From Betaproteobacteria bacterium (GTDB lineage: Bacteria > Pseudomonadota > Gammaproteobacteria > Burkholderiales > Rhodocyclaceae): a stretch of DNA of 64,000 nucleotides. The notes below the pieces were generated by a model. The model made no database searches. It was given only the letters and a program-made list of their open reading frames with translations, and had not been told where the DNA came from. Position numbers and translations under genes: made by a program. Location: NCBI GenBank assembly GCA_009779265.1, contig WREP01000009.1, positions 1 to 64,000 of the forward strand, read 5' to 3'. Positions 962 through 26,081 of the stretch are shown one piece after another. How positions within the stretch are numbered: the stretch's first letter is position 1; every line of letters starts with the position of its first letter.

Positions 962-3709
962 CTACCCTTGGCTGTGCGGTGAAATTGCCTGGGAAATCTG
1001 CTCCGGCTCTGCGCCGCGCAGTTCGTCGAACCAGTCCAGCCGGCGCAGTACGGATTTTTCGATTTCCAGCAGGAACATCACCGCCGCGCCGAGGGCGGGG
1101 GCCAGCAGCAGGTCGGTGAGGGGTAGCGGGCGGGTGTTGAACAGGGCCTGCATCCACGGTGTGTAGGTGAAGGCCAGTTGCAGCACCAGCACAGTGAGGA
1201 TGGCGAGGAATACCGCCGGGGTGCCGCGCGCGCCACGCCAGGTGAGCGAGGTGGTGTGCAGGTAGCGCACCGAGAACAGATAGCCGATTTCGAGCGCGCA
1301 CAGGGTGTTGACCACCAGGGTGCGCGTGGCTTCCAGCCCCAGATCCCGCGCCTCACCCCAGAGCATGGTCAGGGCGATGGCGAGCGCGAACAGGGCGGAA
1401 ACAAGCGCCAGCCGCCATAGCATGAAGGGCGTGAGCAGCGGCGCGTGCGCCGGGCGCGGCGGGCGGCGCATGACGCCGTCCTCGGGCGGCTCGAAGGCCA
1501 GCACCAGGCCGAGGGTGATGGTCAGGGCCATGTTGATCCACAAAATCTGCGCCGTCGTCAGCGGCAGCGTCAGGCCCAGCATCAGGGCGCCGGCCACCGC
1601 CAGCACTTCGCCGCCATTGGTCGGCAGCGTCCACGCCAGCACCTTGCGGATGTTGTCATAGACCACGCGCCCTTCGCTGACGGCGGCGACGATGGAGGCG
1701 AAGTTGTCGTCGGCGAGCACGATCTGCGAGGCTTCCTTGGCCGCTTCGGTGCCCTTGTGGCCCATGGCGATGCCGACGTCGGCCTGCTTGAGCGAGGGGG
1801 CGTCGTTTACGCCGTCGCCCGTCATCGCCACCACCGCGCCCTGGCTTTGCAGGGCGCGCACCACGCGCAGCTTGTGTTCCGGGCTGGTGCGGGCGAACAC
1901 CTGGGCGCGCTGCGCCAGCGCCGGCAGCGCCGCGTCATCCACCGTGTCGAGCTGCGCGCCGGTGACGACTTCCGGCTGTTCCGCCAGGCCCAGTTGCGCG
2001 GCGATGGCCTGGGCGGTGGTGGCGTGGTCGCCGGTGATCATTTTCACCGCCACGCCGGCGCTGCGGCAGTCGGCCACGGCGGCAATGGCTTCCGGGCGCG
2101 GCGGGTCGATGAAGCCGATCAGCCCGGCCAGCGTCAGGCCGCTCAAGTGCGTGTCGTCGATCTGCGCGACCGGCTGCGGCAGATAGCGGAAGGCAAAGCC
2201 CAGCACGCGCTCGCCGTGGGCGGCGATCTGGTCGATGCGTGCGTGCCAGTCGGCTTCAAGCAGCGGCCCGCTAGCGCGGCCATCGCTGCCGAGCGCGTCG
2301 GCGCACATCGCCAGCACGCGCTCCGGCGCGCCCTTGACCAGCAGCAGCGCGCCGCCTTCCGGCAGGGCGTGTAGCGTCGCCATGTAGCGATGCGCGGCGT
2401 CGAAGGGCAGCACGTCAAGGCGCGGATGCGCGTCGTGCTCGGCCTGCGGGTTCAGGCCAGCCTTGATGGCGAGCGCCAGTAGCGCGCCTTCCATCGGGTC
2501 GCCGGTGACGTGCCACTGATCGGCGCTTTCGACCAGCGCGGCGTCGTTGCACAGCAGACCGACGCGCGCCAGTAGGCGCATGTCCTCGCCCGGATCGGGG
2601 TCTAGCGTGCCGACGGGCGCATAGCCCGCGCCGGTGGCCAGGCACTCGCCGCTGGCGGTGACGAGGCGGCGGCAGGTCATTTCGTTGCGCGTCAGCGTGC
2701 CGGTTTTGTCGGAGCAGATAACACTGGTCGCGCCCAGCGTTTCCACGGCGGGCAATTGCCGCACGATGGCGTGGCGCGCCGCCATGCGCTGCACGCCGAT
2801 GGCCAGCGTAATGGTGATGACCGCCGGCAGCCCTTCGGGTACGAAGCCCACAGCCAGCGCCACGACGGTCATGAAGGCGTCGAGCCAGGCGTAGCCGCGC
2901 ACCAGCACGGCGAAGGCGAACAGCGCCACCGCCGCGAGCAGCGCGAACACCGTCAACTGTCGCCCGAAGCGGTTGATCTGCCGCAGCAGCGGCGTGGTGA
3001 GCGGGTCGATCGCCCCCAGCAGGGCGCTGATTTTGCCGATTTCGGTGCGCAGGCCGGTGGCGACGACCACGCCGCGTCCCTGCCCAGCCGCCACCAGCGT
3101 GCCGGAATAGGCCATGCCCGCGCGGTCGCCCAGCGGCGCATCGGCGGCGACGGCGGCGTCGGATTTTTCGGCGGTGACCGATTCGCCCGTAAGCAGCGCC
3201 TCGTCGATGCGCAGCGAGCGCGCCTGCACCAGCCGCAGATCGGCCGGCACGCGGTCGCCGGCCTCGATGAGCACGACGTCGCCCGGCACCAGACCGGCCA
3301 CATCCGCCATGTGCTGTTCGCCATCGCGCAGCACGCGGGCGTGGGGCGTCAGCATGTTGTGCAGGGCGTCCATCGCCGCCTCGGCCTTGCCCTCTTGCAG
3401 CACGCCGACGATGGCGTTGACCAGCACCACGGTAACGATCACCGCCGCATCGACCCAGTGCCCGAGCGCGCCAGCGATGACGGCGGCGGCCAGCAGAAAG
3501 ACGATCAGCGCATTGGCGAATTGCGCGCCGAAGCGTTGCAGCCAGTTGCGCCGCGGCGGCGAGGGCAGGGCGTTGGGGCCGTGCGCCGCCAGCCGCTGGG
3601 CGGCTTCATCGGTGGTGAGGCCGCGGTGGATGTCGCTCTGTTGGGCTGCGGCCACTTGGGCGGACGGTAGCGCGTGGGGCGGCAAGGTCGGGGCGGCGGA
3701 ATGGGACAT
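962..3709 (-). CDS. P-type cation-transporting ATPase (P2 type)
   Basis: A 915-residue membrane pump of the calcium-ATPase-like P2 class. It has an N-terminal cation-ATPase domain, the actuator motif TGES near residue 173, the M4 motif VPEGLP, the phosphorylation site CSDKTGTLT with Asp near 334, KGAPE in the nucleotide domain near 462, and the hinge MTGDGVNDAP near 628. The M6 region (NMALTITLGLVLAFEP) differs from classical calcium sites, so the transported ion is uncertain. The start at 3709 is chosen over 3757 because AAGGAA sits 6 bases upstream. It stands alone, with no adjacent regulator. All catalytic motifs are intact. Confidence 0.9.
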   Translation of the reverse strand: MSHSAAPTLPPHALPSAQVAAAQQSDIHRGLTTDEAAQRLAAHGPNALPSPPRRNWLQRFGAQFANALIVFLLAAAVIAGALGHWVDAAVIVTVVLVNAIVGVLQEGKAEAAMDALHNMLTPHARVLRDGEQHMADVAGLVPGDVVLIEAGDRVPADLRLVQARSLRIDEALLTGESVTAEKSDAAVAADAPLGDRAGMAYSGTLVAAGQGRGVVVATGLRTEIGKISALLGAIDPLTTPLLRQINRFGRQLTVFALLAAVALFAFAVLVRGYAWLDAFMTVVALAVGFVPEGLPAVITITLAIGVQRMAARHAIVRQLPAVETLGATSVICSDKTGTLTRNEMTCRRLVTASGECLATGAGYAPVGTLDPDPGEDMRLLARVGLLCNDAALVESADQWHVTGDPMEGALLALAIKAGLNPQAEHDAHPRLDVLPFDAAHRYMATLHALPEGGALLLVKGAPERVLAMCADALGSDGRASGPLLEADWHARIDQIAAHGERVLGFAFRYLPQPVAQIDDTHLSGLTLAGLIGFIDPPRPEAIAAVADCRSAGVAVKMITGDHATTAQAIAAQLGLAEQPEVVTGAQLDTVDDAALPALAQRAQVFARTSPEHKLRVVRALQSQGAVVAMTGDGVNDAPSLKQADVGIAMGHKGTEAAKEASQIVLADDNFASIVAAVSEGRVVYDNIRKVLAWTLPTNGGEVLAVAGALMLGLTLPLTTAQILWINMALTITLGLVLAFEPPEDGVMRRPPRPAHAPLLTPFMLWRLALVSALFALAIALTMLWGEARDLGLEATRTLVVNTLCALEIGYLFSVRYLHTTSLTWRGARGTPAVFLAILTVLVLQLAFTYTPWMQALFNTRPLPLTDLLLAPALGAAVMFLLEIEKSVLRRLDWFDELRGAEPEQISQAISPHSQG

Positions 3710-3824
3710 GCGAGATTCCTTGAATGGGTTCAGGCCACGGAAGCGCTTTCCCGGCACGAACAGTTAAGTCGGTTGTGGATCATGCCATCGCATCGGCTGG
3801 AATAAAAGCCGACTGGCCGGCGCT

Positions 3825-4700
3825 TCAATGCAGCGCGTCGCGGGCGGCGAAGAGGGCGGCGATGTCGGTTGGGCTAAAGCGATATTCGCGGTTGCAGATG
3901 TCGTCGCGGATCACGATTTCGCCGTGTTCAGCGAGGAGGCTTTCGGCTTCCGGGCGGCCGAGGGCGCGGATCATGTCGCGGATCTTGTCCCAATCCTCCG
4001 GGCAGTGGTACTGCACCGGCCGCGCGTCGTAGAGACGCAGGCCGCGTGCCGCCATGTCCTCGTGGAAGAGCCGGGTGAGCAGGCTTTCGGCGTTGGCGGC
4101 GAGCAATTCGCCGGGTTTGACGGTGGCGGCCAGTTGGCTGATACGATTCCAGCCGTCCGGGTCGCGGGCGTCGGCCCCGGGCATTTTTTGCAGGAACAGG
4201 CAGGCGGCGACCTCCGGGCTGGCCGCGGCGAACAGGCGCGAGGGTTGCTGCTCGGATTGCTCCAGATAATGCTCGAATATGGCGGCGATGCTGTCACCGG
4301 CCAGCGGCACGAAACTCTGGTAGGGCTGACGGGCGCTCGGCAGATCGAGACTCATCAGCAGTTGGCCGCCTTGGCCGGCGCCGAGCAGTTCCGGCACCGG
4401 CGCTGGCGGCACGGCCGCGTCGCTGCGCGCCATGCCGCGCAGCCGCAAAGCTTCGTCGCAATCCAGCACCAGCAACTGGATCGGGCCGTTGCCGCGCAAT
4501 TGCAGCGTCAGCCGGCCGGGCTGCTTCAATTGGCCGGCGATGAGCGCGGTGACGGCGGCCGTTTCGCCGAGCAATTGAGCTACCGCCAGCGGATAGCCGC
4601 GGCCTTCCTGCATCTGCCGCCAGGCCGCGCCGAGATGGACGACGGCGCCGCGAATGTCGAGGCCCTCGAAGAAAAAACGGCGGACGAAACCCTCGCTCAT
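3825..4700 (-). CDS. hslO: Hsp33 redox-regulated chaperone
   Basis: A 291-residue cytoplasmic holdase chaperone activated by oxidation in characterised homologues. The N-terminal core (RFFFEGLDIRGAVVHL, LLGETAAVTALIAGQLK) is well conserved. The C-terminal redox switch normally carries CXC and CXXC zinc ligands. Here only YHCPEDW and DDICNREY are visible, leaving two of the four cysteines. The start at 4700 overlaps the upstream ArsC-like stop as ATGA; an alternative ATG lies at 4709. Pairing with a thiol-reductase-like gene fits oxidative-stress work. Zinc-dependent switching may be altered. Confidence 0.9.
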   Translation of the reverse strand: MSEGFVRRFFFEGLDIRGAVVHLGAAWRQMQEGRGYPLAVAQLLGETAAVTALIAGQLKQPGRLTLQLRGNGPIQLLVLDCDEALRLRGMARSDAAVPPAPVPELLGAGQGGQLLMSLDLPSARQPYQSFVPLAGDSIAAIFEHYLEQSEQQPSRLFAAASPEVAACLFLQKMPGADARDPDGWNRISQLAATVKPGELLAANAESLLTRLFHEDMAARGLRLYDARPVQYHCPEDWDKIRDMIRALGRPEAESLLAEHGEIVIRDDICNREYRFSPTDIAALFAARDALH

Positions 4701-5059
4701 TGGAAGCATTCCGCGTAACTTTCCGGCGTGAAGCCGACCAGCAATTCGTTGCCGACATCGAGTACCGGGCGCTTGATCAGCGCCGGGTACTGGGCCATCA
4801 GCGCCAGCGCCTTGGCGGCGTCGACATCGGCGCGCTCGGCCTCGGTGAGCTTCTTCCACATCAGGCCGCGCCGGTTGAGCAGCTTTTCCCATCCGGCCCG
4901 CGCTGACCAGTCGGGCAGATGCCCGGCGGCGACGCCCGCCTTCTTGTAATCGACGAATTCGTAGGCGACACCATGTTTGTCGAGCCAAGTCATGGCTTTT
5001 TTCATGGTGTCGCAGTTTCTGATGCCGTAGATGCGGCAAGGTGGTGGTGTGGTTTTCAT
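4697..5059 (-). CDS. ArsC/Spx-family reductase-like protein (YffB type)
   Basis: A 120-residue thioredoxin-fold protein beginning MKTTPPPCRIYGIRNCDTMK. GIRNCDTMKKA is the active-site signature of YffB-like members of the ArsC/Spx family, with one cysteine (C-D-T-M) instead of a CXXC pair. The IKRPVLD segment near residue 95 is the conserved cis-proline region. Homologues are proposed glutathione-dependent thiol reductases; the substrate is unknown. It overlaps hslO by ATGA, so the two are co-translated. Arsenate reduction is less likely because no ars genes are nearby. Confidence 0.8.
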   Translation of the reverse strand: MKTTPPPCRIYGIRNCDTMKKAMTWLDKHGVAYEFVDYKKAGVAAGHLPDWSARAGWEKLLNRRGLMWKKLTEAERADVDAAKALALMAQYPALIKRPVLDVGNELLVGFTPESYAECFQ

Positions 5060-14755: not shown

Positions 14756-16753
14756 ATGAATCTTGCCGACTTGCTGCGATTCGGACACATTGCCATACAG
14801 TGTCATGACAACCCTGACGCCGACGCCATTGCCGCCGGTTTCGGGCTGTATTCCTATTTCACGGCCAGAGGGATCAAAGCCGTGCTTTTCCATGGCGGGC
14901 GCGCGCCGGTGACCAAGCCCAATCTGGTGAAAATGCTGGCCCTCTGCGATATTCCCCTGGAGCATTACCCGGAAAGCCGCGATTGGCCGGGCCTGCTCAT
15001 CACCGTGGATTGCCAGCACGGGGCGGGCAACGTGTCGCCCATGCGCGGCGCCGAGGTGGCTGTCATCGATCACCATATCCAGGAATGCCCGATGCCGGCC
15101 CTGTACGACATTCGCCCCTATCTTGGCGCTTGCTCGACCCTGGTTTGGCTCCTGATGCGGGAAGCGGGCTTTTGCCTTGAGGAAATCGGGCCGGAGCGGG
15201 GCGCGACCCTGCTGACCGCCTTGTACTATGGATTGCTTACCGACACCGGCGGTTTTGCCGAGGTCAGGCACCCGCTGGACCGCGATCTGCGTGATCAGGA
15301 TGGAATCGTCGAGCGGATCATCAAGACGCTCAGAAGCTCCAATTTGTCGCTGGAAGATTTGTCCATTGCCTCTTCCGCCCTGGTCGAATTGCGCTTCGAT
15401 CCCCAAGGCAGTTTCGTTCTGGTCGGCGCGCGGCCCTGCGATCCCAACATCCTGGGCTTCATCAGCGATCTCGTCCTGCAAGTGGATACCGTGGATATCG
15501 TCGTGGTTTACTGCGAAACGCCGGGAGGCATCAAATATTCCGTGCGTTCCATCGCCCGGGATTGCAAGGCTTCCGATCTGGCGGCCTGGATCGCCGCCGA
15601 TGGACTCGGTTCCGGCGGCGGTCACGCGGAAAAAGCCGGGGGTTGGATCAGCGGACGCAACTTCGCCGAGCGCATGCCGAACCTCGAACCCGTGGACTAT
15701 TTCGACCGTCGGCTGCGCGAATACCGGGCTGCCTATACCATCATCGACAGCACAGCCGCGCCTCGCGCGGAAGGCATGCTTTCCGAAGCGACTCGGGCGC
15801 GGCGCTATACGAAGCGTCCCCTGCGTCTGGCCTATGTGCCCGCCGAGGCGCTGCCGCGCGGCTCCTCGCTGCAAATCCGCATGCTCGAAGGCGACATCAG
15901 TCTTGCCGCCGGGCCGGACACCTACCTGATGATTGGACTGCTGGGCGAGGTCTATCCCATCTCCCGCGCTGTCTTCGATAGCGTCTACCGCCCTGTGGAC
16001 GCCCCTCTGCAACTGGCCCTGCCATACATGCCCACCGTTCTGGACAAAACGACGGGAATCCGCCTGCGCTTGGACAACATGGCCCGCTCTTGCCTCCGCC
16101 TGGGCGGCGGCGCCGTGCGCGCGGCGCCCCTGGAGCAGGGCGTCAAAGTTTTCACCCGCTGGGATCCGGACAATTATTTCAAGGGAGAAAAGGACGATTG
16201 GCTTGTCTGGTCGGAAGAAGATCCGACGGATATCTACATCGTCACGGCGGCGCTCTTTCCGCTGCTGTACGCTGAAGAAAACGCCGAAACGGACGATGGC
16301 GGCGAAGTGCGCAACTACGATGGCATCGACGTGGCCGCGCAACCCGGCGCCGTGCGGGCGCGGAAAAAACCGCTCACGGTGACCGTGCGTTTCGCGCGCC
16401 AAGCTGGCGTCGCCGCCACGCGCGAAGGTCCCGTGCCCTACGCCATCGGCGATGCTCTGATCACCGGCGTCAGCGGTGAAACATGGCCCGTGCGCCCGGA
16501 GCATTTCGCTGCCGCCTACGCGCCCCAGCCGCCAGTGCAAGCTGGAGAGGACGGCGTCTATCAGGTGCGCCCCATCGAAGTTGATGCCCTTTGCATGCCC
16601 GCCATCTTTTGTCTCAGCCTGAAAAACGGCGGCTTGCTCTGGGGGCATCGCGGCGACTGGCTGATGCAGTACGGCAAGGGTGATTACGGCATTGTCGACG
16701 CGGGGGTTTTTACCGCAACCTATGAAATTTCGCGCGGCCCGGAAAAGTCATGA
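14756..16753 (+). CDS. DHH-family phosphoesterase with four PGDYG-like repeats
   Basis: A 665-residue protein. The first half is a DHH/DHHA1 phosphoesterase with motif I HDNPDADAIA (residues 17-26), a motif II VDCQHG, DHH in VIDHHIQ (about 106-108), motif IV GLLTDTGGF and the DHHA1 GSGGGHAEKAGG (about 286-297). All metal-binding positions look intact. Relatives cut small RNAs or cyclic dinucleotides. The second half holds four degenerate repeats, each with a GD(W/Y)L-like turn, then G..G..(Y/W), then F...Y (ending near 411, 505, 588 and 656). The third and fourth match the PGDYG family pattern best. It overlaps the TIR gene by ATGA, so the two are made together. The substrate is unknown. Confidence 0.75.
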   Translation: MNLADLLRFGHIAIQCHDNPDADAIAAGFGLYSYFTARGIKAVLFHGGRAPVTKPNLVKMLALCDIPLEHYPESRDWPGLLITVDCQHGAGNVSPMRGAEVAVIDHHIQECPMPALYDIRPYLGACSTLVWLLMREAGFCLEEIGPERGATLLTALYYGLLTDTGGFAEVRHPLDRDLRDQDGIVERIIKTLRSSNLSLEDLSIASSALVELRFDPQGSFVLVGARPCDPNILGFISDLVLQVDTVDIVVVYCETPGGIKYSVRSIARDCKASDLAAWIAADGLGSGGGHAEKAGGWISGRNFAERMPNLEPVDYFDRRLREYRAAYTIIDSTAAPRAEGMLSEATRARRYTKRPLRLAYVPAEALPRGSSLQIRMLEGDISLAAGPDTYLMIGLLGEVYPISRAVFDSVYRPVDAPLQLALPYMPTVLDKTTGIRLRLDNMARSCLRLGGGAVRAAPLEQGVKVFTRWDPDNYFKGEKDDWLVWSEEDPTDIYIVTAALFPLLYAEENAETDDGGEVRNYDGIDVAAQPGAVRARKKPLTVTVRFARQAGVAATREGPVPYAIGDALITGVSGETWPVRPEHFAAAYAPQPPVQAGEDGVYQVRPIEVDALCMPAIFCLSLKNGGLLWGHRGDWLMQYGKGDYGIVDAGVFTATYEISRGPEKS

Positions 16754-17703
16754 CGCACGACATTTTTGTAAGCTATTCCACCCGGGACAAGCTGTTCGCC
16801 GACGCGCTCGTGCACCGGCTGGAAAAAGCCGGCTACCGCTGCTGGTATGCGCCGCGTGACATCGCGGCGGGCGTCGCTTGGCCCCAGGCCATCAGCCAGG
16901 CCATACGCGAGATTCCTCTCATGCTGCTGGTTTTTTCCGGCGCCTCCAACAGTTCGGACGAAATTTCCCGCGAATTGACCTTGGCTTCCAGCAATAAACG
17001 CATCGTGCTGCCGGTGCGCATCGAGAATGTCCTGCCTGGCGCTGGGCTGGAATATCACCTGGCCGATCGGCATTGGCTGGATGTTTTCGGTCTCGAAGAA
17101 GAAGCGGCCATCAATCGCGTGCTGGAAGGACTGGCGAGTTACGCCCCCATTTTCGCCGCCGCGCGTCCCGACGAGACGCCCGCGCCAGCCCCCGCCGCGC
17201 CATCTCCGGATTCGCCATCGCGGTCGCGCGGCCTGTGGATACTGTTGGCCTCTTTGCTGCTCATACTGCTCGTCGGCGCGCTCGCCTTTTGGTTTGAACG
17301 CGCGCCCGATGACACGGACGCCCTCAGCCTGCACGAACCGCCCTCCCTGGTTCACTACGTCAACGACAACCTGTCCATCGCCGCGCATACTCTGCGCCTG
17401 AACCCGTCGCCCGATTCACCGCTGCCGCAATATCTCGTCACGCTCACCGGCATCGGCGAGCCTTTTGATGGCCACATCTTTCTCTGCCAGCAGCGGGAGA
17501 AAAACAATACCTTGCGCTTTGACGCCACCATTGACGATCGGTCGTTTGTCCTGCTCATCGTGGATCACAGGGGGCGGGGCATGATCTACCAACCCGGTAG
17601 CGCGCGGGAATACCCCGTCCTGCTTTCGCCACGGGATAATAACGCCGCGAGCGCCCGGCATATGCTCAAGATGTACCGGCAAGGCAAACGGTGGACGGAA
17701 TGA
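16750..17703 (+). CDS. TIR-domain membrane protein
   Basis: A 317-residue protein. Residues 1-135 are a TIR domain (HDIFVSYSTRDKLFADALV, WYAPRDIAAG, SSDEISRELTLAS), with a glutamate in REL at the position used for NAD cleavage in active TIR enzymes. A Pro/Ala-rich linker leads to one transmembrane helix (about 162-183, GLWILLASLLLILLVGAL), then a C-terminal domain of about 130 residues of unknown fold. The TIR end should be cytoplasmic. Overlap with the DHH gene suggests joint function, perhaps making and degrading a nucleotide signal. Some bacterial TIR proteins only bind partners, so enzymatic activity is unproven. Confidence 0.8.
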   Translation: MTHDIFVSYSTRDKLFADALVHRLEKAGYRCWYAPRDIAAGVAWPQAISQAIREIPLMLLVFSGASNSSDEISRELTLASSNKRIVLPVRIENVLPGAGLEYHLADRHWLDVFGLEEEAAINRVLEGLASYAPIFAAARPDETPAPAPAAPSPDSPSRSRGLWILLASLLLILLVGALAFWFERAPDDTDALSLHEPPSLVHYVNDNLSIAAHTLRLNPSPDSPLPQYLVTLTGIGEPFDGHIFLCQQREKNNTLRFDATIDDRSFVLLIVDHRGRGMIYQPGSAREYPVLLSPRDNNAASARHMLKMYRQGKRWTE

Positions 17704-17760: not shown

Positions 17761-17854
17761 TCTTTTGGAGATAAGGTTTTCAACCCTGTTGGCAGGTTGA
17801 GAAAATGCCCCGGCTTCATTGAGCGCAAGAAAATCTGATGAAAGAGGTGCGTGT

Positions 17855-18871
17855 ATGTCGAGCAATGTGAATTATTCGAGAGCATACGATGTGTTCGTGT
17901 CTTACCGCAGGGACGGCGGCGAGACGATGGCGATCTTGATACGCGATCGCCTTGCGTCGAAAGGTTTCAATGTTTTTCTTGACGTCGAGAGTCTGAACTC
18001 GGGAAATTTCAACACGAAACTGCTCCAGGTAATCGAAAGTTGCAATGACTTTGTCGCGGTTCTCTCGCCGGGCGCCCTGGATCGCTGTGCCAACGAGGAT
18101 GATTGGGTGAGGGCCGAGATAGCGCACGCGATCAAACACAATAAAAATATAGTTCCCATCATGCTGCGCGGTTTCGAATGGCCAGAACATCTGCCGGAGG
18201 ATATCGCGGATCTGCCGATGAAAAACGGCGTTAACGCGAACAACAATGAATATTTCGACGCCGCCATTGACAGACTGACCGAAAAGTTTTTATTGTCAAA
18301 GCCGATGAAGCTTTTCGACAAGATAAGCCTCTTTGCGAAGAATGCGGTTGACAAGACAAGCGAGGTTATCGAATCCGCGAAGATAAACGAGAAGATCAGC
18401 GAGAGCAGAAGGAAATTTTCGGAAACAAAGACACAGTTCGGCGACATGGTGGATGTTTCGAAGTTAAATACGAGGATCAGCGATAGTAAATACAGAGTAA
18501 ACAATATCAAGCAAAAACTCGGTGATTATTACTGGGGAAAATACAAAGAAGGCGTCGCGCTTGATGCCGAGGCGGATAAACTTTGCGCCGCGATCAAGGA
18601 CGAAGTCGAATTGATCGACGAATGTAATCGCGAGATTCAAAAAATAAAAAAGATACCCGAAACAGGTAACGCGGCGAAACCGGCGGAAGATATAAAATGC
18701 GCGGAATGCAGCGCGATTCTGCCCTCGGATGCGAAATTCTGTCCCGAATGTGGTGCAGTGGCCGCAGTCAAAGCGCCTGAGCCAGCCCCGGAAGTTGTAC
18801 TTTGCAGCAACTGCGGCGCGCAAATTTCGAGTGACAGAAAATTTTGCCAGGAATGCGGAACCAGGCTGTGA
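17855..18871 (+). CDS. TIR-domain protein with helical middle and two zinc ribbons
   Basis: A 338-residue protein. The N-terminal TIR domain (YDVFVSYRRDGGETMAILIR, VFLDVESLNSG, DDWVRAEIAHAIKHNKNIVP) has a glutamate at the usual catalytic place. Residues about 150-265 are Lys/Glu-rich and probably helical or coiled coil. Two C-terminal zinc ribbons follow (CAECSAIL...FCPECG and CSNCGAQI...FCQECG). The start at 17855 follows AGAGGTG and replaces the ORF start at 17819. Base use is clearly more AT-rich than the neighbours, a sign of transfer. The zinc ribbons may bind nucleic acid or partners. Signalling or antiviral function is inferred from the TIR/DHH context only. Confidence 0.8.
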   Translation: MSSNVNYSRAYDVFVSYRRDGGETMAILIRDRLASKGFNVFLDVESLNSGNFNTKLLQVIESCNDFVAVLSPGALDRCANEDDWVRAEIAHAIKHNKNIVPIMLRGFEWPEHLPEDIADLPMKNGVNANNNEYFDAAIDRLTEKFLLSKPMKLFDKISLFAKNAVDKTSEVIESAKINEKISESRRKFSETKTQFGDMVDVSKLNTRISDSKYRVNNIKQKLGDYYWGKYKEGVALDAEADKLCAAIKDEVELIDECNREIQKIKKIPETGNAAKPAEDIKCAECSAILPSDAKFCPECGAVAAVKAPEPAPEVVLCSNCGAQISSDRKFCQECGTRL

Positions 18872-20923: not shown

Positions 20924-22135
20924 TCACTCACCCGCCTTGAAGTTGTAAACCGTGCGGATTCTTTCAATGACTTCCACCGTCGGCTGGATGTGCGAAAGAA
21001 TCTCGTCCATGTTCTTGTAGACCATCGGCGATTCATCCAGGGTATTGCGCTGGACCGAGGTCGAGAAAACGCCTTTCATCTCGGCGTGGAATTCATCCAG
21101 GGACAGGGTATTGAACGCCTTGGTGCGGCTCATCAAGCGGCCCGCCCCGTGCGGCGCGGAATAGTTCCACTCGGCGTTGCCCTTGCCGACGCAAAGCAGG
21201 CTGCCGTCGCGCATGTTGATCGGGATCAGCAGATGTTCCCCCGCCTTGGCGGAAACGGAGCCTTTGCGCAAGATCATCGCTGCCGTGTCGATGTAATTGT
21301 GGATGGTGGTGAAGCGGTCCGTTTCGGCCAGCCCCATGCCGTCCAGGATGACTTCCGTCATCGCCTGCCGGTTGAGAACCGCGAAACGCTGGACGATGCG
21401 CATGTCGTGCAGGTAATCGTCGAAAAGATCATCCGCGGCGTAGGTCAAATCCTTGGGAATATCCGTGCCGGGTTTCAGGCTTTGTAGCGTTGCCTCGATT
21501 TCCTGTTCGCGTCCTTCGGCTTTCAATGTGGCGATGGTTTCCTGCACCGCCTCTTTGGCCGGGCCGCTCAGGCGGTCGAAAGCCTGTTTCTGATACCAGG
21601 TGGCGACCTCCTGCCCAAGGTGGCGGCTGCCGGAATGCACGACCAAGTAGAGCGCCCCGTCATCGGCGCGGCCCAACTCGATGAAATGGTTGCCCCCGCC
21701 CAGCGTGCCGATGCTCAAGCGCGCGCGGCCCACATTGACGCGCTCGGCGCAGCGCAATTTATCCAGGTCGATGGCCGCGTTCAGGGCGTGATGGCTTTTG
21801 CGGATGCCGCGCCCGGACGGGATTTCCGCCCGGATCAGGCGGTCGAGTCTGGCGAAATCCAGGTCGCGCCCGGCCGGATTTTTCCAACTGATTCGCACGG
21901 TTTCCATGCCGCAGCCGATATCGACGCCGACCATGCCCGGCACGATCTTGTCGGTAATGGTCATGGTCGTGCCGATGGTGCAGCCTTTTCCGGCATGAAC
22001 GTCCGGCATGATACGAATCCGGCTGGCCGCGAATTCCGCGCGGTCGCAGACCGCCTTGATCTGCTTGAATGCCTCGGGTTCCAGTTCCCCGCAATAGCAG
22101 AGGGCGGTGTTGTGGGTGCCTTTTACTTCGATCAT
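20924..22135 (-). CDS. rtcB: RNA-splicing/repair ligase RtcB
   Basis: A 403-residue GTP- and manganese-dependent ligase that joins RNA 2',3'-cyclic phosphate or 3'-phosphate ends to 5'-OH ends. Metal and guanylate motifs are visible: MPDVHAGKGC, GVDIGCGM, GTLGGGNHFIEL, HSGSRHLGQ, HNYID, and the nucleophile histidine in APHGAGRLMSR near residue 330. The start at 22135 has GGAG 8 bases upstream; the ATG at 22141 overlaps the upstream stop but sits only 2 bases from GGAG. It is the last gene of the slipin/zinc-ribbon/rtcB operon. No rtcA cyclase is present. Confidence 0.95.
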   Translation of the reverse strand: MIEVKGTHNTALCYCGELEPEAFKQIKAVCDRAEFAASRIRIMPDVHAGKGCTIGTTMTITDKIVPGMVGVDIGCGMETVRISWKNPAGRDLDFARLDRLIRAEIPSGRGIRKSHHALNAAIDLDKLRCAERVNVGRARLSIGTLGGGNHFIELGRADDGALYLVVHSGSRHLGQEVATWYQKQAFDRLSGPAKEAVQETIATLKAEGREQEIEATLQSLKPGTDIPKDLTYAADDLFDDYLHDMRIVQRFAVLNRQAMTEVILDGMGLAETDRFTTIHNYIDTAAMILRKGSVSAKAGEHLLIPINMRDGSLLCVGKGNAEWNYSAPHGAGRLMSRTKAFNTLSLDEFHAEMKGVFSTSVQRNTLDESPMVYKNMDEILSHIQPTVEVIERIRTVYNFKAGE

Positions 22136-22140
22136 GGTCA

Positions 22141-22551
22141 TTACTCCGGAATGTTGTTTTTTAGAGCAGCCAGCCGTGCCAGCTTCCGTTGCTTTCCTTC
22201 CTCGCTGACGCGCCGCACTTCCACCTTGCGCCGGCGTTCCTTGACGCGGCAGGCAAGGCAGCGGACGGCGGTGGTATCCATGGATTTGCGCATGGTTTCA
22301 TACCACCATTTTTGATCCTTGGCTCGCCAAACGCAGGAAGCGCCGCAATCCTTGCAAATGAAAGGTTTGTCCTCATAGTAATACTTGCCTTTTTCATAGA
22401 CGACAGGCAGCAGTTTTGCGAACCATTCAAAATATTCCTCGACTAGATTCAAGCGGGAAGCATCAACCGGTACGTGGTCGAGAACCCCGGAATTGCGTCG
22501 CCTTTCCTGTTGGCGAATTTTTCGCGCCGAAACTTTATTACGCGATTTCAT
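22141..22551 (-). CDS. Zinc-ribbon protein of the RtcB operon
   Basis: A 136-residue very basic protein with a central treble-clef-like zinc site, FICKDCGASCVWRAKDQKWW then VRCLACR. It resembles the small zinc-ribbon family whose CxDC...QxWW...CxxCR pattern is common in uncharacterised proteins. Basic N- and C-terminal tails suggest RNA binding. Its stop overlaps the first rtcB ATG, so expression is tied to RtcB. A role as substrate adaptor for RNA repair is possible but inferred only from position. Confidence 0.75.
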   Translation of the reverse strand: MKSRNKVSARKIRQQERRRNSGVLDHVPVDASRLNLVEEYFEWFAKLLPVVYEKGKYYYEDKPFICKDCGASCVWRAKDQKWWYETMRKSMDTTAVRCLACRVKERRRKVEVRRVSEEGKQRKLARLAALKNNIPE

Positions 22552-22613: not shown

Positions 22614-23753
22614 TTACCCCGCCTTCAAAGTCACCAAACCGTTCAGCACCTGATCCAGGCCACCGAAGACCGAGATGCGGTCGATGCGTTCGGCCACCCG
22701 TTCCAGGGTTTCCAGTTCCTTCAGCCGCAAGGCCACCGGATTGTCTTCCATGACCTTGGCGGTGTTCAAGAGCGAGCGGGTCGCGGCGGTTTCCTCGCGG
22801 CGGCGGATGACGTTGGCTTCCGCCGACTTCGCCGCTTCCACCACGCGGGCGAGGATTTCCTTCATGTCGCCCGGCAGCACGATGTCACGCACGCCGAGGC
22901 TGCCGACCTCGATGCCGAAACCATTCATCTTCGTCCTGACATGCGCGGCAACCATCTCGTCGATATCCTGTTTGTTTTCCAGGATCGCGTCGATGCTGCG
23001 GGTGCCGACGGCGGCGCGCAGGCCGAACTGCAATTCCCGGTACAGGTAATCGGCGGGCTTGCCGACCTCGGCAAACGCCTTTTGCACGTCGGTGTAACGC
23101 CAGCTCGCCACGAGATTGATGCGCAGGCCCACACGATCCTTGCTCATGATCTCCTGGCCGCTCACTTCCATGACTTGCAAGCGCGTATCGACCAGTTCGA
23201 CCCGAACGTCGCGATTGAAGCGCCAGAAAGCCCTCAAGCCCGGTTCGAGCAAGGCCGCGATTTGCCCGTCGATGCTCAACACGCCGACATGGTAGGCCGG
23301 AACTTGAACGAACAAAACGCCATCCAGCCCCGTTACCGCGCGGCCTTTCGGCGTGGCCGGGTTGATCTGGGCCGCCAGCGCGCCGGGCAATTCCGCGCCC
23401 GCTTCGAGGTCGAAACGTTCCAGCCGGTGCGTTTTCATCCCTTTCCAGATGAAACGCCGCGCGCCGGGCGGCAAAACCTCGACCGGAACCTCGTTTTCAA
23501 AACGCAAACCGGCCTCGTTGCTGGCGAGCGTCATGACGACGAAGTGCTTTTCCGCTTGCGCCGGATCGTTTTGCAGCAGGTAGTCGACGAGCGGCTCGGC
23601 AGGCATCACCGAATCCTGCGCCCAAGCGTTGACTTCCGCCTTGCCGCCGAAGGGCCAGAAGCGGTAACGCCCCGGTTCCAGAATGGCGCGAAAATCGCCG
23701 TCCCGCGTCAGGATGCCTTTTTCATTCACCCGCACGATAAATTTTTGCAACAT
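22614..23753 (-). CDS. Slipin (SPFH/Band 7 family protein)
   Basis: A 379-residue protein with an SPFH core (VDTRLQVMEVSGQEIMSKDRVGLRINLVASW, GRDL-type GTRSIDAILENKQDID) and a C-terminal helical part. The start at 23753 (MLQKFIVRVNEKG) is preferred over the ORF start at 23999, because the upstream codons are Arg/Pro/Ala-rich noise and GAGGAAGAAG precedes this ATG. Slipins form membrane-bound scaffolds; no hydrophobic anchor is obvious here. Slipin genes next to rtcB and rtcR are a recognised association in RNA-repair operons. It is the first protein gene after the sigma-54 promoter and tRNA-like leader. Confidence 0.85.
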   Translation of the reverse strand: MLQKFIVRVNEKGILTRDGDFRAILEPGRYRFWPFGGKAEVNAWAQDSVMPAEPLVDYLLQNDPAQAEKHFVVMTLASNEAGLRFENEVPVEVLPPGARRFIWKGMKTHRLERFDLEAGAELPGALAAQINPATPKGRAVTGLDGVLFVQVPAYHVGVLSIDGQIAALLEPGLRAFWRFNRDVRVELVDTRLQVMEVSGQEIMSKDRVGLRINLVASWRYTDVQKAFAEVGKPADYLYRELQFGLRAAVGTRSIDAILENKQDIDEMVAAHVRTKMNGFGIEVGSLGVRDIVLPGDMKEILARVVEAAKSAEANVIRRREETAATRSLLNTAKVMEDNPVALRLKELETLERVAERIDRISVFGGLDQVLNGLVTLKAG

Positions 23754-24015
23754 TTTCTTCTTCCTCTCATAAAGTGCCGGCCTTGCCGGCCCGGCGGACG
23801 CTTCTTTCGATGCGGCGGGGGCGGTTGATGGGGCGGCGGCGGAATCCGGCTTCCGCCGGATGGACGATGCCGCCATCCGGCAAAACCTTCTCCCGTCCCG
23901 CGCCAGCAACCGTGCCCGTCGCACGGGCCGAATGTCTGGCCGGGCCGGCGGCGAAGGTTTTCGCAAACCCCCGCGGCCGGCGGGTACTACGACGTACAAA
24001 GCCGTTTCAGGGCTT
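23754..24015 (-). other. Leader between tRNA-like modules and slipin
   Basis: About 260 GC-rich bases without a believable gene. The slipin frame stays open through part of it, but codon use is poor. A weak AAGCC/GGCTT hairpin directly follows the tRNA-like module near 24001-24013. It is read here as a long 5' untranslated leader. Confidence 0.4.
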
Positions 24016-24087
24016 TTTTGGAGCGGGAGTCGAACCCGCGACAGATCGGTTATGCGCCGATTGCTCTACCCATTGAGCTATCCAAAT
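24016..24087 (-). ncRNA. tRNA-like module in the rtcB operon leader
   Basis: The minus strand folds as a full cloverleaf: acceptor ATTTGGA with TCCAAAA (6 of 7 pairs), D arm GCTC/GAGC with GG in the loop, anticodon arm ATCGG-CGCATAA-CCGAT, a 5-base variable loop, and T arm GCGGG-TTCGACT-CCCGC. Position 33 is G instead of the near-universal U, the first acceptor pair is A-A, and no CCA is encoded. A functional tRNA-Met is therefore unlikely. It lies between the sigma-54 promoter and the slipin gene. In enterobacteria, rtcBA-linked Y RNAs (YrlA) contain a tRNA-like domain, which is the closest precedent I know. Confidence 0.65.
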
Positions 24088-24133
24088 GGCGTGCAATCGG
24101 GAATCGAACCCAACGAAGCAACCATGCTTGCAC
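24087..24133 (-). ncRNA. Second, reduced tRNA-like module (minihelix)
   Basis: Immediately upstream of the cloverleaf, GTGCAA (24133-24128) pairs with TTGCAC (24096-24091). They enclose a small GCA/TGC hairpin and a canonical T arm TTGGG-TTCGATT-CCCGA, and the module ends in GCCA. It looks like a tRNA reduced to acceptor, T arm and one stub. It would be on the same transcript as the cloverleaf. Function is unknown; mimicry of a damaged tRNA is a guess. Confidence 0.5.
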
Positions 24134-24265
24134 CTGGTGGTCACATTGCCCTGAGCGGGCGGCATACGCGAAGGCGACGTTGCAAGCGGCTCTCGCGCAC
24201 CGGTGGGGCTGTGGAACCCCTGACCTGTCATCCCTGCTCAAAACTGTTGTGTCCGCTGTCTCTAC

Positions 24266-24281
24266 AGCAGGGGGCGTGCCA
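24266..24281 (-). promoter_or_regulatory. Sigma-54 promoter for the tRNA-like RNA/slipin/rtcB operon
   Basis: TGGCACGCCCCCTGCT on the minus strand matches the -24/-12 consensus, with GG and GC exactly ten bases apart. RtcR, a sigma-54 activator, is encoded divergently 157 bases away. Transcription should begin near 24255 and read through both tRNA-like modules. RtcR control of rtc operons is established in E. coli; here it is inferred from arrangement and promoter type. Confidence 0.8.
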
Positions 24282-24437: not shown

Positions 24438-26081
24438 ATGAAAAAAACCGTGGTCTTTGGCTTTCTCGGCGTCAAGCTCGACGCCATGGGCGGCTTCAAC
24501 CTGCAAAAGCGCATGGGCCGATGGCGTCCCACCGTCGGCTTGTGCAGCCAGCCGGATTTCCCCGTGCATCGGCTGGAACTGCTGCACAACCCGCGCGACA
24601 AGGCGCTGGCCGGGCGCATTGTCGATGATATTGGCGCGATATCGCCGGCAACCGGCGTGCGGCCGTTTGAACTGGCGCTGACCAATCCCTGGGATTTCGA
24701 GGAGGTCTATACCAAGCTGCGCGATTTTTCGCTGGGATATGAATTCGATATCGACCGCGAAGACTATTTCGTGCACATCACCACCGGCACCCACGTGGTG
24801 CAAATCTGCTGCTTCCTGCTGACCGAGGCGCATCATTTTCCCGGCCGCCTCATCCAGACCATGCCGCGCCGCAACCGGGAAGAAGAGGAGGAAGCGGGCG
24901 GCAGGCCCGCCGGATTCGTCGATGTCATCGACCTCGACCTTTCCCGTTATGACCAGATCGCGCAGCGTTTCCGCCGCGAGCAGGCTGATGCGATCAGTCA
25001 TCTGAAATCCGGCATCACCACGAAAAACGCGGCTTTCAACGTCATGATCGAGCAGATCGAGCGCGTGGCCGGGCGCTCGCGCGCCCCCATGCTGCTGACC
25101 GGGCCGACCGGCGCGGGCAAGTCCTTTCTGGCGCGGCGCGTTTTCGAGTTGAAACAGGCGCGGCAGAAACTGAAAGGGCGCTTCGTCGAAGTCAATTGCG
25201 CGACCTTGCGCGGCGATTCCGCCATGTCCGCCCTGTTCGGCCACGTCAAGGGCGCATTCACTGGCGCGTTGAGCGAACGGGCGGGCCTGCTGCGCCAGGC
25301 GGATGGCGGCGTGCTCTTCCTCGATGAAATTGGCGAACTCGGGATGGACGAGCAGGCGATGCTGCTCAAGGCCATCGAGGACAAGCGTTTTCCGCCCTTC
25401 GGCAGCGACAGCGAAACAGAGAGCGATTTTCAACTCATCGCCGGAACCAACCGCGACCTGCGCGAACGCATCCGCGAAGGCCGCTTCCGGGCGGATTTAT
25501 ATGCCCGCATCAATCTTTGGACTTTCCGGCTGCCCGCGCTGGCGGAGCGCCCGGAAGACATCGAACCCAACCTGGACTACGAACTCGCCCGCTATGCCCG
25601 CGACTGCGGCGTGCAGGCGCGTTTCAACGTCGAGGCGCGCCGCCGTTATCTCGCTTTCGCCTGCGCGCCGGAAACGCGCTGGCCGGGCAATTTCCGCGAA
25701 CTTACCGCCAGCGTCACCCGCCTGGCGACGCTGGCGACCAATGGCCGCATCACCGAGGCCGATGTCGCCGAGGAAATCGGCCGCCTGCGCGCCGCCTGGA
25801 ACGACACATGGCAATCGCCCGATAGCGTGGAAAGCGCGTTGGGCAAGGAAGCCGCCGCCGAACTCGACCTCTTCGAGCGCGGCCAGCTGGAGGTTGTGCT
25901 GCAAACTTGCCAGCGGAGCAGGAGTCTTTCCGAGGCGGGACGGCTATTGTTCGCCCATTCGCGGCAACAGAAAAAACAGGCGAACGACGCCGACCGGCTA
26001 CGAAAATACCTGCTGCGCTTCGGGCTGGATTGGGAAACGGCGCGGGAGATGGAAAAGAGCCTTCCTGATGCGGTGGGCTGA
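24438..26081 (+). CDS. rtcR: Sigma-54-dependent transcriptional activator RtcR
   Basis: A 547-residue regulator. The N-terminal RtcR/CARF-like sensor (KKTVVFGFLGVKLDAMGG, NPWDFEEVYTKL, ITTGTHVVQICCFLL) leads into a AAA+ domain with Walker A LTGPTGAGKS (near 217), GAFTGA (near 276) and Walker B VLFLDEIGEL, then a C-terminal DNA-binding region (NDADRLRKYLLRFGL). GAFTGA contacts sigma-54. CARF-type sensors bind nucleotide-ended ligands, and RtcR of other bacteria responds to damaged tRNA. It is divergent from the slipin/rtcB operon, whose promoter is sigma-54 type. Confidence 0.95.
   Translation: MKKTVVFGFLGVKLDAMGGFNLQKRMGRWRPTVGLCSQPDFPVHRLELLHNPRDKALAGRIVDDIGAISPATGVRPFELALTNPWDFEEVYTKLRDFSLGYEFDIDREDYFVHITTGTHVVQICCFLLTEAHHFPGRLIQTMPRRNREEEEEAGGRPAGFVDVIDLDLSRYDQIAQRFRREQADAISHLKSGITTKNAAFNVMIEQIERVAGRSRAPMLLTGPTGAGKSFLARRVFELKQARQKLKGRFVEVNCATLRGDSAMSALFGHVKGAFTGALSERAGLLRQADGGVLFLDEIGELGMDEQAMLLKAIEDKRFPPFGSDSETESDFQLIAGTNRDLRERIREGRFRADLYARINLWTFRLPALAERPEDIEPNLDYELARYARDCGVQARFNVEARRRYLAFACAPETRWPGNFRELTASVTRLATLATNGRITEADVAEEIGRLRAAWNDTWQSPDSVESALGKEAAAELDLFERGQLEVVLQTCQRSRSLSEAGRLLFAHSRQQKKQANDADRLRKYLLRFGLDWETAREMEKSLPDAVG

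What the first reader, a model, noticed from the sequence alone, without database searches (positions are those of the whole stretch)
24016..24281. tRNA-like RNAs under a sigma-54 promoter at the head of an RtcR-controlled RNA-repair operon
Seen: a near-perfect -24/-12 promoter, then a reduced tRNA-like minihelix and a complete but abnormal cloverleaf (G at position 33, no CCA), then slipin, zinc-ribbon protein and rtcB; rtcR is divergent. Known: RtcR is a sigma-54 activator responding to RNA damage, and enterobacterial rtc loci carry Y RNAs with tRNA-like domains. Inference: the leader RNA may be a decoy, sensor or substrate in RNA repair, and two modules in series would be an unusual version.
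Basis: partly seen in the sequence, partly recalled or inferred. Interest (0 to 1): 0.82.

Follow-up and report, generated by a model that had tools for sequence, protein, structure and literature searches.

The report
tRNA-mimicking leader RNA of RNA-repair operon
Between a damage-activated switch gene and an RNA-repair operon lies a conserved structured RNA that imitates tRNAs without being able to decode, and in related bacteria it is found only directly in front of the gene for one scaffold protein, which suggests the RNA and that protein work together.

Summary
On the minus strand a -24/-12 promoter (24281-24267) precedes a T-arm minihelix (24133-24087) and a full cloverleaf with G33 and no CCA (24087-24015), then slipin, a zinc protein and rtcB, with rtcR divergent. 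Over 81 slipin loci the 5' domain and the cloverleaf show strong two-sided covariation, 64 of 65 RtcR-type loci have one -24/-12 site 5' of the RNA, and 48 of 81 have two T-arm modules, so tandem modules are usual. D and T arms are nearly invariant, but the anticodon loop is free and often replaced by UUCG or GNRA tetraloops. This argues against a spare tRNA and against a general anticodon-nuclease decoy. The RNA follows slipin, not RtcR or the promoter. It is not a Y RNA: the YrlA score is far below cut-off and no Ro protein was found. From memory, Burroughs & Aravind (2016) described a 'novel tRNA-like molecule' with SPFH/Band-7 repair modules, so this is a member of a known kind, with architecture I could not find described. 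Most likely it is an RtcR-induced elbow-mimic RNA partnering slipin; that function is inferred.

The parts
24267..24281 (-). sigma-54 (-24/-12) promoter TGGCACGCCCCCTGC
   Evidence: one equivalent site 5' of the RNA in 64 of 65 RtcR-type loci, 2% in shuffles; RpoN present
24155..24238 (-). 5' structured domain (D5): hairpin P1 plus stem P2/P3 with conserved CCGGTGC ... TATGCCGC
   Evidence: alignment A3, 42 sequences: 94.8% of cells paired, 90 two-sided changes against 25 in shuffles, 11 of 17 pairs two-sided; CM R1 72.4 bits here
24087..24133 (-). TLS1: tRNA-like minihelix (acceptor-like stem, D-like remnant, T-arm) ending in G-CCA (24090-24087); no anticodon arm
   Evidence: second T-arm module in 48 of 81 loci; CCA within +4..+9 of the T-arm in 35 of 55 TLS1 against 5 of 55 TLS2
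24015..24087 (-). TLS2: complete cloverleaf, loop CGCATAA (G33, 'CAU'), no CCA; shares its first base with TLS1's CCA
   Evidence: alignment A4, 39 sequences: 95% of cells paired, 127 two-sided changes against 38; all 5 anticodon-stem pairs covary; D stem invariant
23998..24016 (-). short hairpin AAAGCC-CTGAAAC-GGCTTT directly after TLS2 (in relatives CTGTC..GACAG or similar)
   Evidence: sequence; no T-run after it, not an intrinsic terminator
23926..23989 (-). 3' domain (D3): conserved GTACCCGCCGG followed by a GC-rich hairpin
   Evidence: alignment A6, 13 sequences: 10 consensus pairs, 3 with two-sided changes; weaker support than D5 and TLS2
22614..23753 (-). slipin-type SPFH/Band_7 protein, 379 aa, no membrane segment, two extra N-terminal beta units
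   Evidence: Pfam Band_7 110 bits; max 19-residue hydropathy 1.41; models and fold matches
22141..22551 (-). zf_Tbcl treble-clef zinc protein, 136 aa
   Evidence: Pfam 49.5 bits
20924..22141 (-). divergent RtcB-family RNA ligase, 405 aa
   Evidence: Pfam RtcB 205 bits; a second, canonical RtcB lies on contig C4
24438..26081 (+). rtcR, divergent sigma-54 activator with CARF domain
   Evidence: NF038308 800 bits, cut-off 650; PADLOC RtcR 831 bits

Best explanation
This is the RtcR/sigma-54-induced RNA of a slipin-type RNA-repair operon. When tRNAs are cut, RtcR (known in Salmonella to be activated by 5' tRNA halves with cyclic phosphate) fires the -24/-12 promoter, and the first ~350 nt transcribed fold into D5 - TLS1 - TLS2 - D3. 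TLS1 and TLS2 copy the tRNA elbow (D-loop/T-loop) and part of the acceptor, but not a working anticodon. The RNA most likely binds the SPFH protein encoded right behind it, and through its tRNA-like elbows gives the slipin oligomer a tRNA-shaped docking or organising element for RtcB-mediated repair, much as Y RNA serves Ro/Rsr. SHOWN: promoter position, modules, covariation, invariant D/T arms with a free anticodon loop, constant position 5' of slipin. INFERRED: that transcripts exist and are induced here, that the RNA binds slipin, and that it acts as scaffold or adaptor rather than purely in cis.
For: Covariation of D5 and TLS2 far above shuffled and slid controls. D and T stems nearly invariant while the anticodon loop is free or capped by UUCG/GNRA: selection is on the elbow. 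Model R1 (D5) hits 8 of 200 order genomes, all 400-480 nt 5' of slipin on the same strand, none in the genomes without a close slipin homologue; 66 of 81 slipin leaders hit and no other E <= 0.01 hit inside those 81 loci in a 918-kb set (42 of these trained the model). The RNA follows slipin: in L044 and L045 the order is rtcR / rtcB - tRNA-like modules - slipin, and the tRNA-array loci keep it just 5' of slipin without an adjacent rtcR. E. coli rtcR-rtcB, with the same promoter but no slipin, has no tRNA-like motif in its 188-bp gap. RtcR ligand: PMC7790460. The slipin is a predicted soluble SPFH protein, suited to a cytosolic scaffold.
Against: No binding, transcript or phenotype data. Constant position directly 5' of slipin fits a cis-acting leader equally well. 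Some Enterobacterales have only one T-arm and a few Pseudomonas loci (L064, L108, L122) keep D5 but lose recognisable T-arms, so tRNA mimicry is not strictly required. No RNA-binding site is identified on slipin.
Confidence: 0.45

Rival explanations
1. Cis-acting leader: tRNA-processing or tRNA-binding factors act on the leader (for example RNase P cutting 5' of TLS2, just after TLS1's CCA), so that slipin-rtcB expression or mRNA stability depends on tRNA-processing state.
For: Always immediately 5' of slipin, even inside the operon. TLS1 often carries CCA exactly where TLS2 begins (35 of 55, against 5 of 55 for TLS2), as in tandem tRNA precursors.
Against: CCA is absent in whole groups (many Pseudomonas). 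The acceptor stem of TLS2 is short or mismatched at the top (pair 3-74 forms in 20 of 39). D5 and D3 would have no obvious role.
Confidence: 0.27
2. Decoy or competitive inhibitor of tRNA-cleaving toxins, sparing real tRNAs (a suggestion made for YrlA in PMC7790460).
For: tRNA-like, induced by tRNA damage, and 27 of 39 TLS2 keep a 7-nt loop.
Against: Loop replaced by UUCG/GNRA tetraloops in several genera, loop sequence unconserved, TLS1 without an anticodon arm. In Salmonella YrlA is not cut by the nuclease (PMC7790460).
Confidence: 0.12
3. Cleaved TLS2 is itself a source of the RtcR ligand, giving positive feedback on the operon.
For: RtcR binds 5' tRNA halves with cyclic phosphate (PMC7790460). 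This genome has no detectable RtcA, so ligands must come straight from nuclease products.
Against: Same tetraloop argument; the RNA is present beside slipin also where no rtcR is adjacent.
Confidence: 0.06
4. A spare, functional or decaying tRNA gene.
For: Good tRNA score, 55 bits.
Against: G33, no CCA, three normal CAU tRNAs with CCA elsewhere in the genome and at most 66% identity to any of 33 tRNAs compared; stems maintained by covariation with random anticodons.
Confidence: 0.03

Closest known systems
tRNA-like RNA associated with SPFH/Band-7 RNA-repair modules (Burroughs & Aravind, NAR 2016; from memory, paper not held)
   Same: tRNA-like ncRNA beside a Band-7 protein and RtcB; probably the same family
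   Different: The paper could not be read here. D5, D3, tandem TLS1-CCA/TLS2, tetraloop capping and the promoter census are documented here; I cannot say whether the paper has them.
YrlA / bacterial Y RNA (RF02553), rsr-yrlBA-rtcBA operon
   Same: RtcR-controlled repair operon; tRNA-like D and T arms; RNA beside a ring-forming protein
   Different: No Ro/TROVE gene found; far below Rfam cut-off. The YrlA model runs T-arm - closed stem - D-arm, here two unpermuted modules; partner is SPFH.
E. coli RtcR-rtcBA operon
   Same: Divergent rtcR and matching -24/-12 site
   Different: No slipin and no tRNA-like RNA in the 188-bp gap; RtcA present there, not found here
Anabaena TrcR / trn tRNA operon and rtcB regulon (PMC10272220)
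   Same: rtcB, a slipin and tRNA genes induced together by translational stress
   Different: Repressor TrcR, no RtcR or sigma-54; 26 house-type tRNAs rather than a non-decoding mimic
Vault particle (MVP, TROVE protein TEP1, vault RNA; general knowledge)
   Same: Soluble SPFH-fold protein with extra N-terminal beta units, next to a small structured RNA
   Different: The similarity is mostly the general SPFH domain (MVP Z about 11-12, stomatin 16-17); no cage shown

Membership tests
RtcR/sigma-54-controlled RNA-repair operon | RtcR activator encoded divergently | tested here: met
   NF038308, 800 bits against cut-off 650
RtcR/sigma-54-controlled RNA-repair operon | -24/-12 promoter ahead of the repair genes, with RpoN in the genome | tested here: met
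RtcR/sigma-54-controlled RNA-repair operon | RtcB ligase in the operon | tested here: met
   Pfam RtcB 205 bits
RtcR/sigma-54-controlled RNA-repair operon | RtcA cyclase (rtcBA type) | tested here: not met
   no PF01137 match in the held 94%-complete genome; E. coli control rings. So slipin type, not rtcBA type
Band-7-associated tRNA-like RNA (Burroughs & Aravind 2016) | tRNA-like RNA encoded beside a Band-7/SPFH gene of an RtcB module | tested here: met
Band-7-associated tRNA-like RNA (Burroughs & Aravind 2016) | sequence and structure match to the RNA drawn in that paper | not testable with these tools
   paper not held
Y RNA / YrlA (RF02553) | Rfam gathering score | tested here: not met
   19.8 and 18.4 bits against 69
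Y RNA / YrlA (RF02553) | cognate Ro60/Rsr (TROVE) protein | tested here: not met
   no PF05731 match in the held 94%-complete genome
Y RNA / YrlA (RF02553) | single permuted tRNA-like module (T-arm, closed stem, D-arm) on a Ro-binding stem | tested here: not met
   two unpermuted modules; cloverleaf pairs covary
functional tRNA | U33 and a sensible anticodon | tested here: not met
   loop CGCATAA with G33; loop unconserved in relatives
functional tRNA | CCA end encoded, as in this genome's tRNA-Met genes | tested here: not met
   TLS2 followed by AAAAAGCCC; the three tRNA-Met genes have CCA
functional tRNA | cloverleaf at or above Rfam cut-off | tested here: met
   55 bits against 29
SPFH/stomatin (slipin) protein | Band_7 domain with SPFH fold | tested here: met
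   Pfam 110 bits; stomatin SPFH Z 16.6, rmsd 1.5 over 109 residues

The most novel reading that the evidence does not exclude
A bacterial vault/Ro-like ribonucleoprotein: a soluble SPFH protein with extra N-terminal beta units assembles a ring or cage around its own multi-domain RNA, whose tandem tRNA elbows dock broken tRNAs or their processing enzymes. A tandem TLS1-TLS2 arrangement of this kind could also be the ancestor from which the circularly permuted tRNA-like module of YrlA arose, by loss of the outer halves.
Probability: 0.12. Interest if true: 0.85.

Novelty: new member of a known kind. Interest (0 to 1): 0.56.

Why it matters
It is still open what the RNAs in RtcR repair operons do. 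This family turns the question into concrete tests: an RNA under strong structural selection, with invariant elbows, a dispensable anticodon loop and one constant protein partner, in culturable hosts including Pseudomonas and Burkholderia. It would show whether RNA repair uses tRNA mimics as organisers, and why Ro/Y-RNA and slipin/tRNA-like-RNA pairs recur in similar operons.

Tried and rejected
1) Plain folding of the 316-nt leader: z -0.54, uninformative; comparative analysis was needed. 2) Pseudogene or recent tRNA copy: rejected. 3) Y RNA membership: rejected on score and missing Ro; enterobacterial slipin loci L104 and L112 show no YrlA match either. 4) A known Rfam family for the 5' domain: none at cut-off. 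5) Intrinsic terminator or attenuator after TLS2: no T-run, no site on the minus strand. 6) Class-wide search with R1 (369 genomes) found only the own locus, but only 12 candidates per genome were scored, so it says little beyond rarity. 7) N-terminal slipin domain alone: no Foldseek match with E <= 0.001, best Z 6.1 to SPFH proteins over about 45 residues; no RNA-binding fold recognised. 9) Literature search found no paper describing this RNA in the held library; the key 2016 NAR paper and Chen et al. 2014 are not held. Supplementary files were not read.

Full report
WHAT IS THERE. On the minus strand, left of the divergent rtcR (24438-26081, +), lies TGGCACGCCCCCTGC (24281-24267), then about 500 nt before the slipin start at 23753, then slipin (Band_7), a zf_Tbcl protein and rtcB. 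ARAGORN and Rfam both call a tRNA at 24087-24015 (55 bits) with loop CGCATAA and no CCA. Immediately 5' is a minihelix (24133-24087) with T-arm TTGGG-TTCGATT-CCCGA and a G-CCA end whose A is the first base of the cloverleaf.

IT IS A CONSERVED RNA FAMILY. A slipin search in 200 genomes of the order and a scan of genome contigs (the best 80 of 559 relatives kept, mainly Beta- and Gammaproteobacteria) gave slipin loci in which ARAGORN mostly reports 'tRNAs' with scattered or impossible anticodons, typically 230-430 nt 5' of slipin. Perfect T-arm hairpins occur in 70 of 81 leaders and twice in 48, against 0.8% in shuffled leaders. So the second module is usual, not an oddity of this locus.

COVARIATION. 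Cloverleaf TLS2, 39 sequences: 95% of pair cells form, against 80% in shuffles and 32-45% when strands are slid; 127 two-sided changes against 38; all five anticodon-stem pairs covary; the D stem never varies. MAFFT was not fitted to the structure. The 3' hairpin D3 has weaker support (13 sequences, 3 of 10 pairs two-sided). The sequences are related, so shuffle counts are not probabilities; the slid controls keep relatedness.

WHAT IS AND IS NOT UNDER SELECTION. GCTCA...GG...GAGC and GGTTCRANTCC are nearly invariant. The anticodon loop is not: of 39 aligned, 27 have 7 nt with varied sequence and 12 do not; most of the latter end in UUCG or GNRA tetraloops, in Accumulibacter, Burkholderia and Pseudomonas. 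Acidovorax-type loci, left out of that alignment, show GAAA or GCAA. In the window position 33 is G. A decoding role is excluded in practice, and an anticodon-loop decoy cannot be the general role. The genome has three ordinary CAU tRNAs with CCA, and TLS2 is at most 66% identical to any of the 33 tRNAs compared. TLS1 carries CCA within +4..+9 of its T-arm in 35 of 55 cases, TLS2 in 5 of 55; CCA on TLS1 is common but not universal.

PROMOTER. Of 65 relatives with divergent rtcR, 64 have one TGGCAC-type -24/-12 site between rtcR and the RNA, on the 5' side of it; 2% of shuffled leaders match the pattern. RpoN is present. E. coli has the same site in a 188-bp gap with no tRNA-like motif. So the transcript very probably includes the RNA; no transcript data exist here.

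WHAT IT TRAVELS WITH. The D5 covariance model (R1) hits 8 of 200 genomes of the order, every hit 400-480 nt 5' of slipin on the same strand; none of the genomes without a close slipin homologue is hit. Among 87 loci (918 kb), 66 of the 81 slipin leaders are hit with E <= 0.01; outside that set only L041 passes, on the strand and at the place of its own slipin leader. Forty-two of the sequences trained the model, so only the others (24 leaders and the position specificity) are independent. In L044 and L045 rtcB stands next to the promoter and the tRNA-like modules lie between rtcB and slipin; in loci with tRNA arrays and no adjacent rtcR (L074, L084-L086, L098, L114, L116, L123) the RNA still sits just 5' of slipin. 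The RNA is therefore slipin's companion, not RtcR's or RtcB's.

PROTEINS. The slipin is predicted soluble (maximum 19-residue hydropathy 1.41): two extra N-terminal beta units, an SPFH domain and a long helix. The SPFH part matches stomatin and HflK/C, and more weakly the vault protein shoulder; the N-terminal part alone matches only single SPFH units with low Z. No RtcA and no TROVE gene were found in the 94%-complete genome; a second canonical RtcB exists on contig C4. RtcR in Salmonella is activated by 5' tRNA halves with cyclic phosphate (PMC7790460).

COMPARISON. From memory, the abstract of Burroughs & Aravind (NAR 2016) names SPFH/Band-7 modules with a cognate 'novel tRNA-like molecule'; the paper is not held, so priority is acknowledged without a residue-level comparison. 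YrlA is a tRNA-mimicking Y RNA made by Ro-type repair operons (PMC8394870, PMC7790460), but here its model scores far below cut-off and its module order is permuted: T-arm, closed stem, D-arm. The YrlA model does match the TLS1/TLS2 junction of L062 (34.9 bits, cut-off 69) and not the junctions of the tRNA array in L114. That is a lead for a tandem-to-permuted origin of YrlA, not evidence of homology.

VERDICT. Real, conserved and structurally well supported; function inferred. Best reading: an RtcR-induced tRNA-elbow-mimic RNA that partners the SPFH protein in RNA repair (0.45). Main rival: a cis-acting, possibly RNase P-processed leader (0.27).

Noticed in passing
L114 about 2919-4721; L041, L074, L084, L085, L098; L033, L043: Slipin loci without an adjacent rtcR often carry arrays of normal-looking tRNA genes (12 in L114 ahead of the tRNA-like pair, next to rtcB; 5-6 in others), in L074 also rtcA and an ORF that looks like an HNH nuclease. 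A proteobacterial parallel to the Anabaena trn operon.
   Followed up: partly
L062 4619-4670; window 24113-24063: The Rfam YrlA model (T-arm, closed stem, D-arm) matches the TLS1/TLS2 junction below cut-off (34.9 and 19.8 bits), hinting that YrlA's permuted module could derive from tandem tRNA-likes.
   Followed up: partly
window 22614-23753: The slipin has no membrane segment and two additional SPFH1-like beta units before the SPFH domain, an arrangement that recalls the vault protein.
   Followed up: partly
L064, L108, L122 (Pseudomonas); L104, L105, L112, L125 (Enterobacterales): Some relatives lost recognisable T-arms while keeping D5; others are reduced to a single T-arm with a divergent 5' part.
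   Followed up: no
window 16750-17703 and 17819-18871: Two neighbouring ORFs begin like TIR-domain proteins (VSYSTRDKLFADALVHRLEKAGYRCW..., VSYRRDGGETMAILIRDRLASKGFNVFLD...), the second with C-terminal zinc ribbons; read from translations only.
   Followed up: no
own genome C4:24859-25983 against window 20924-22141: Two RtcB paralogues: a canonical one (429 bits) and the divergent operon copy whose Pfam match is split at about profile positions 92-139.
   Followed up: no
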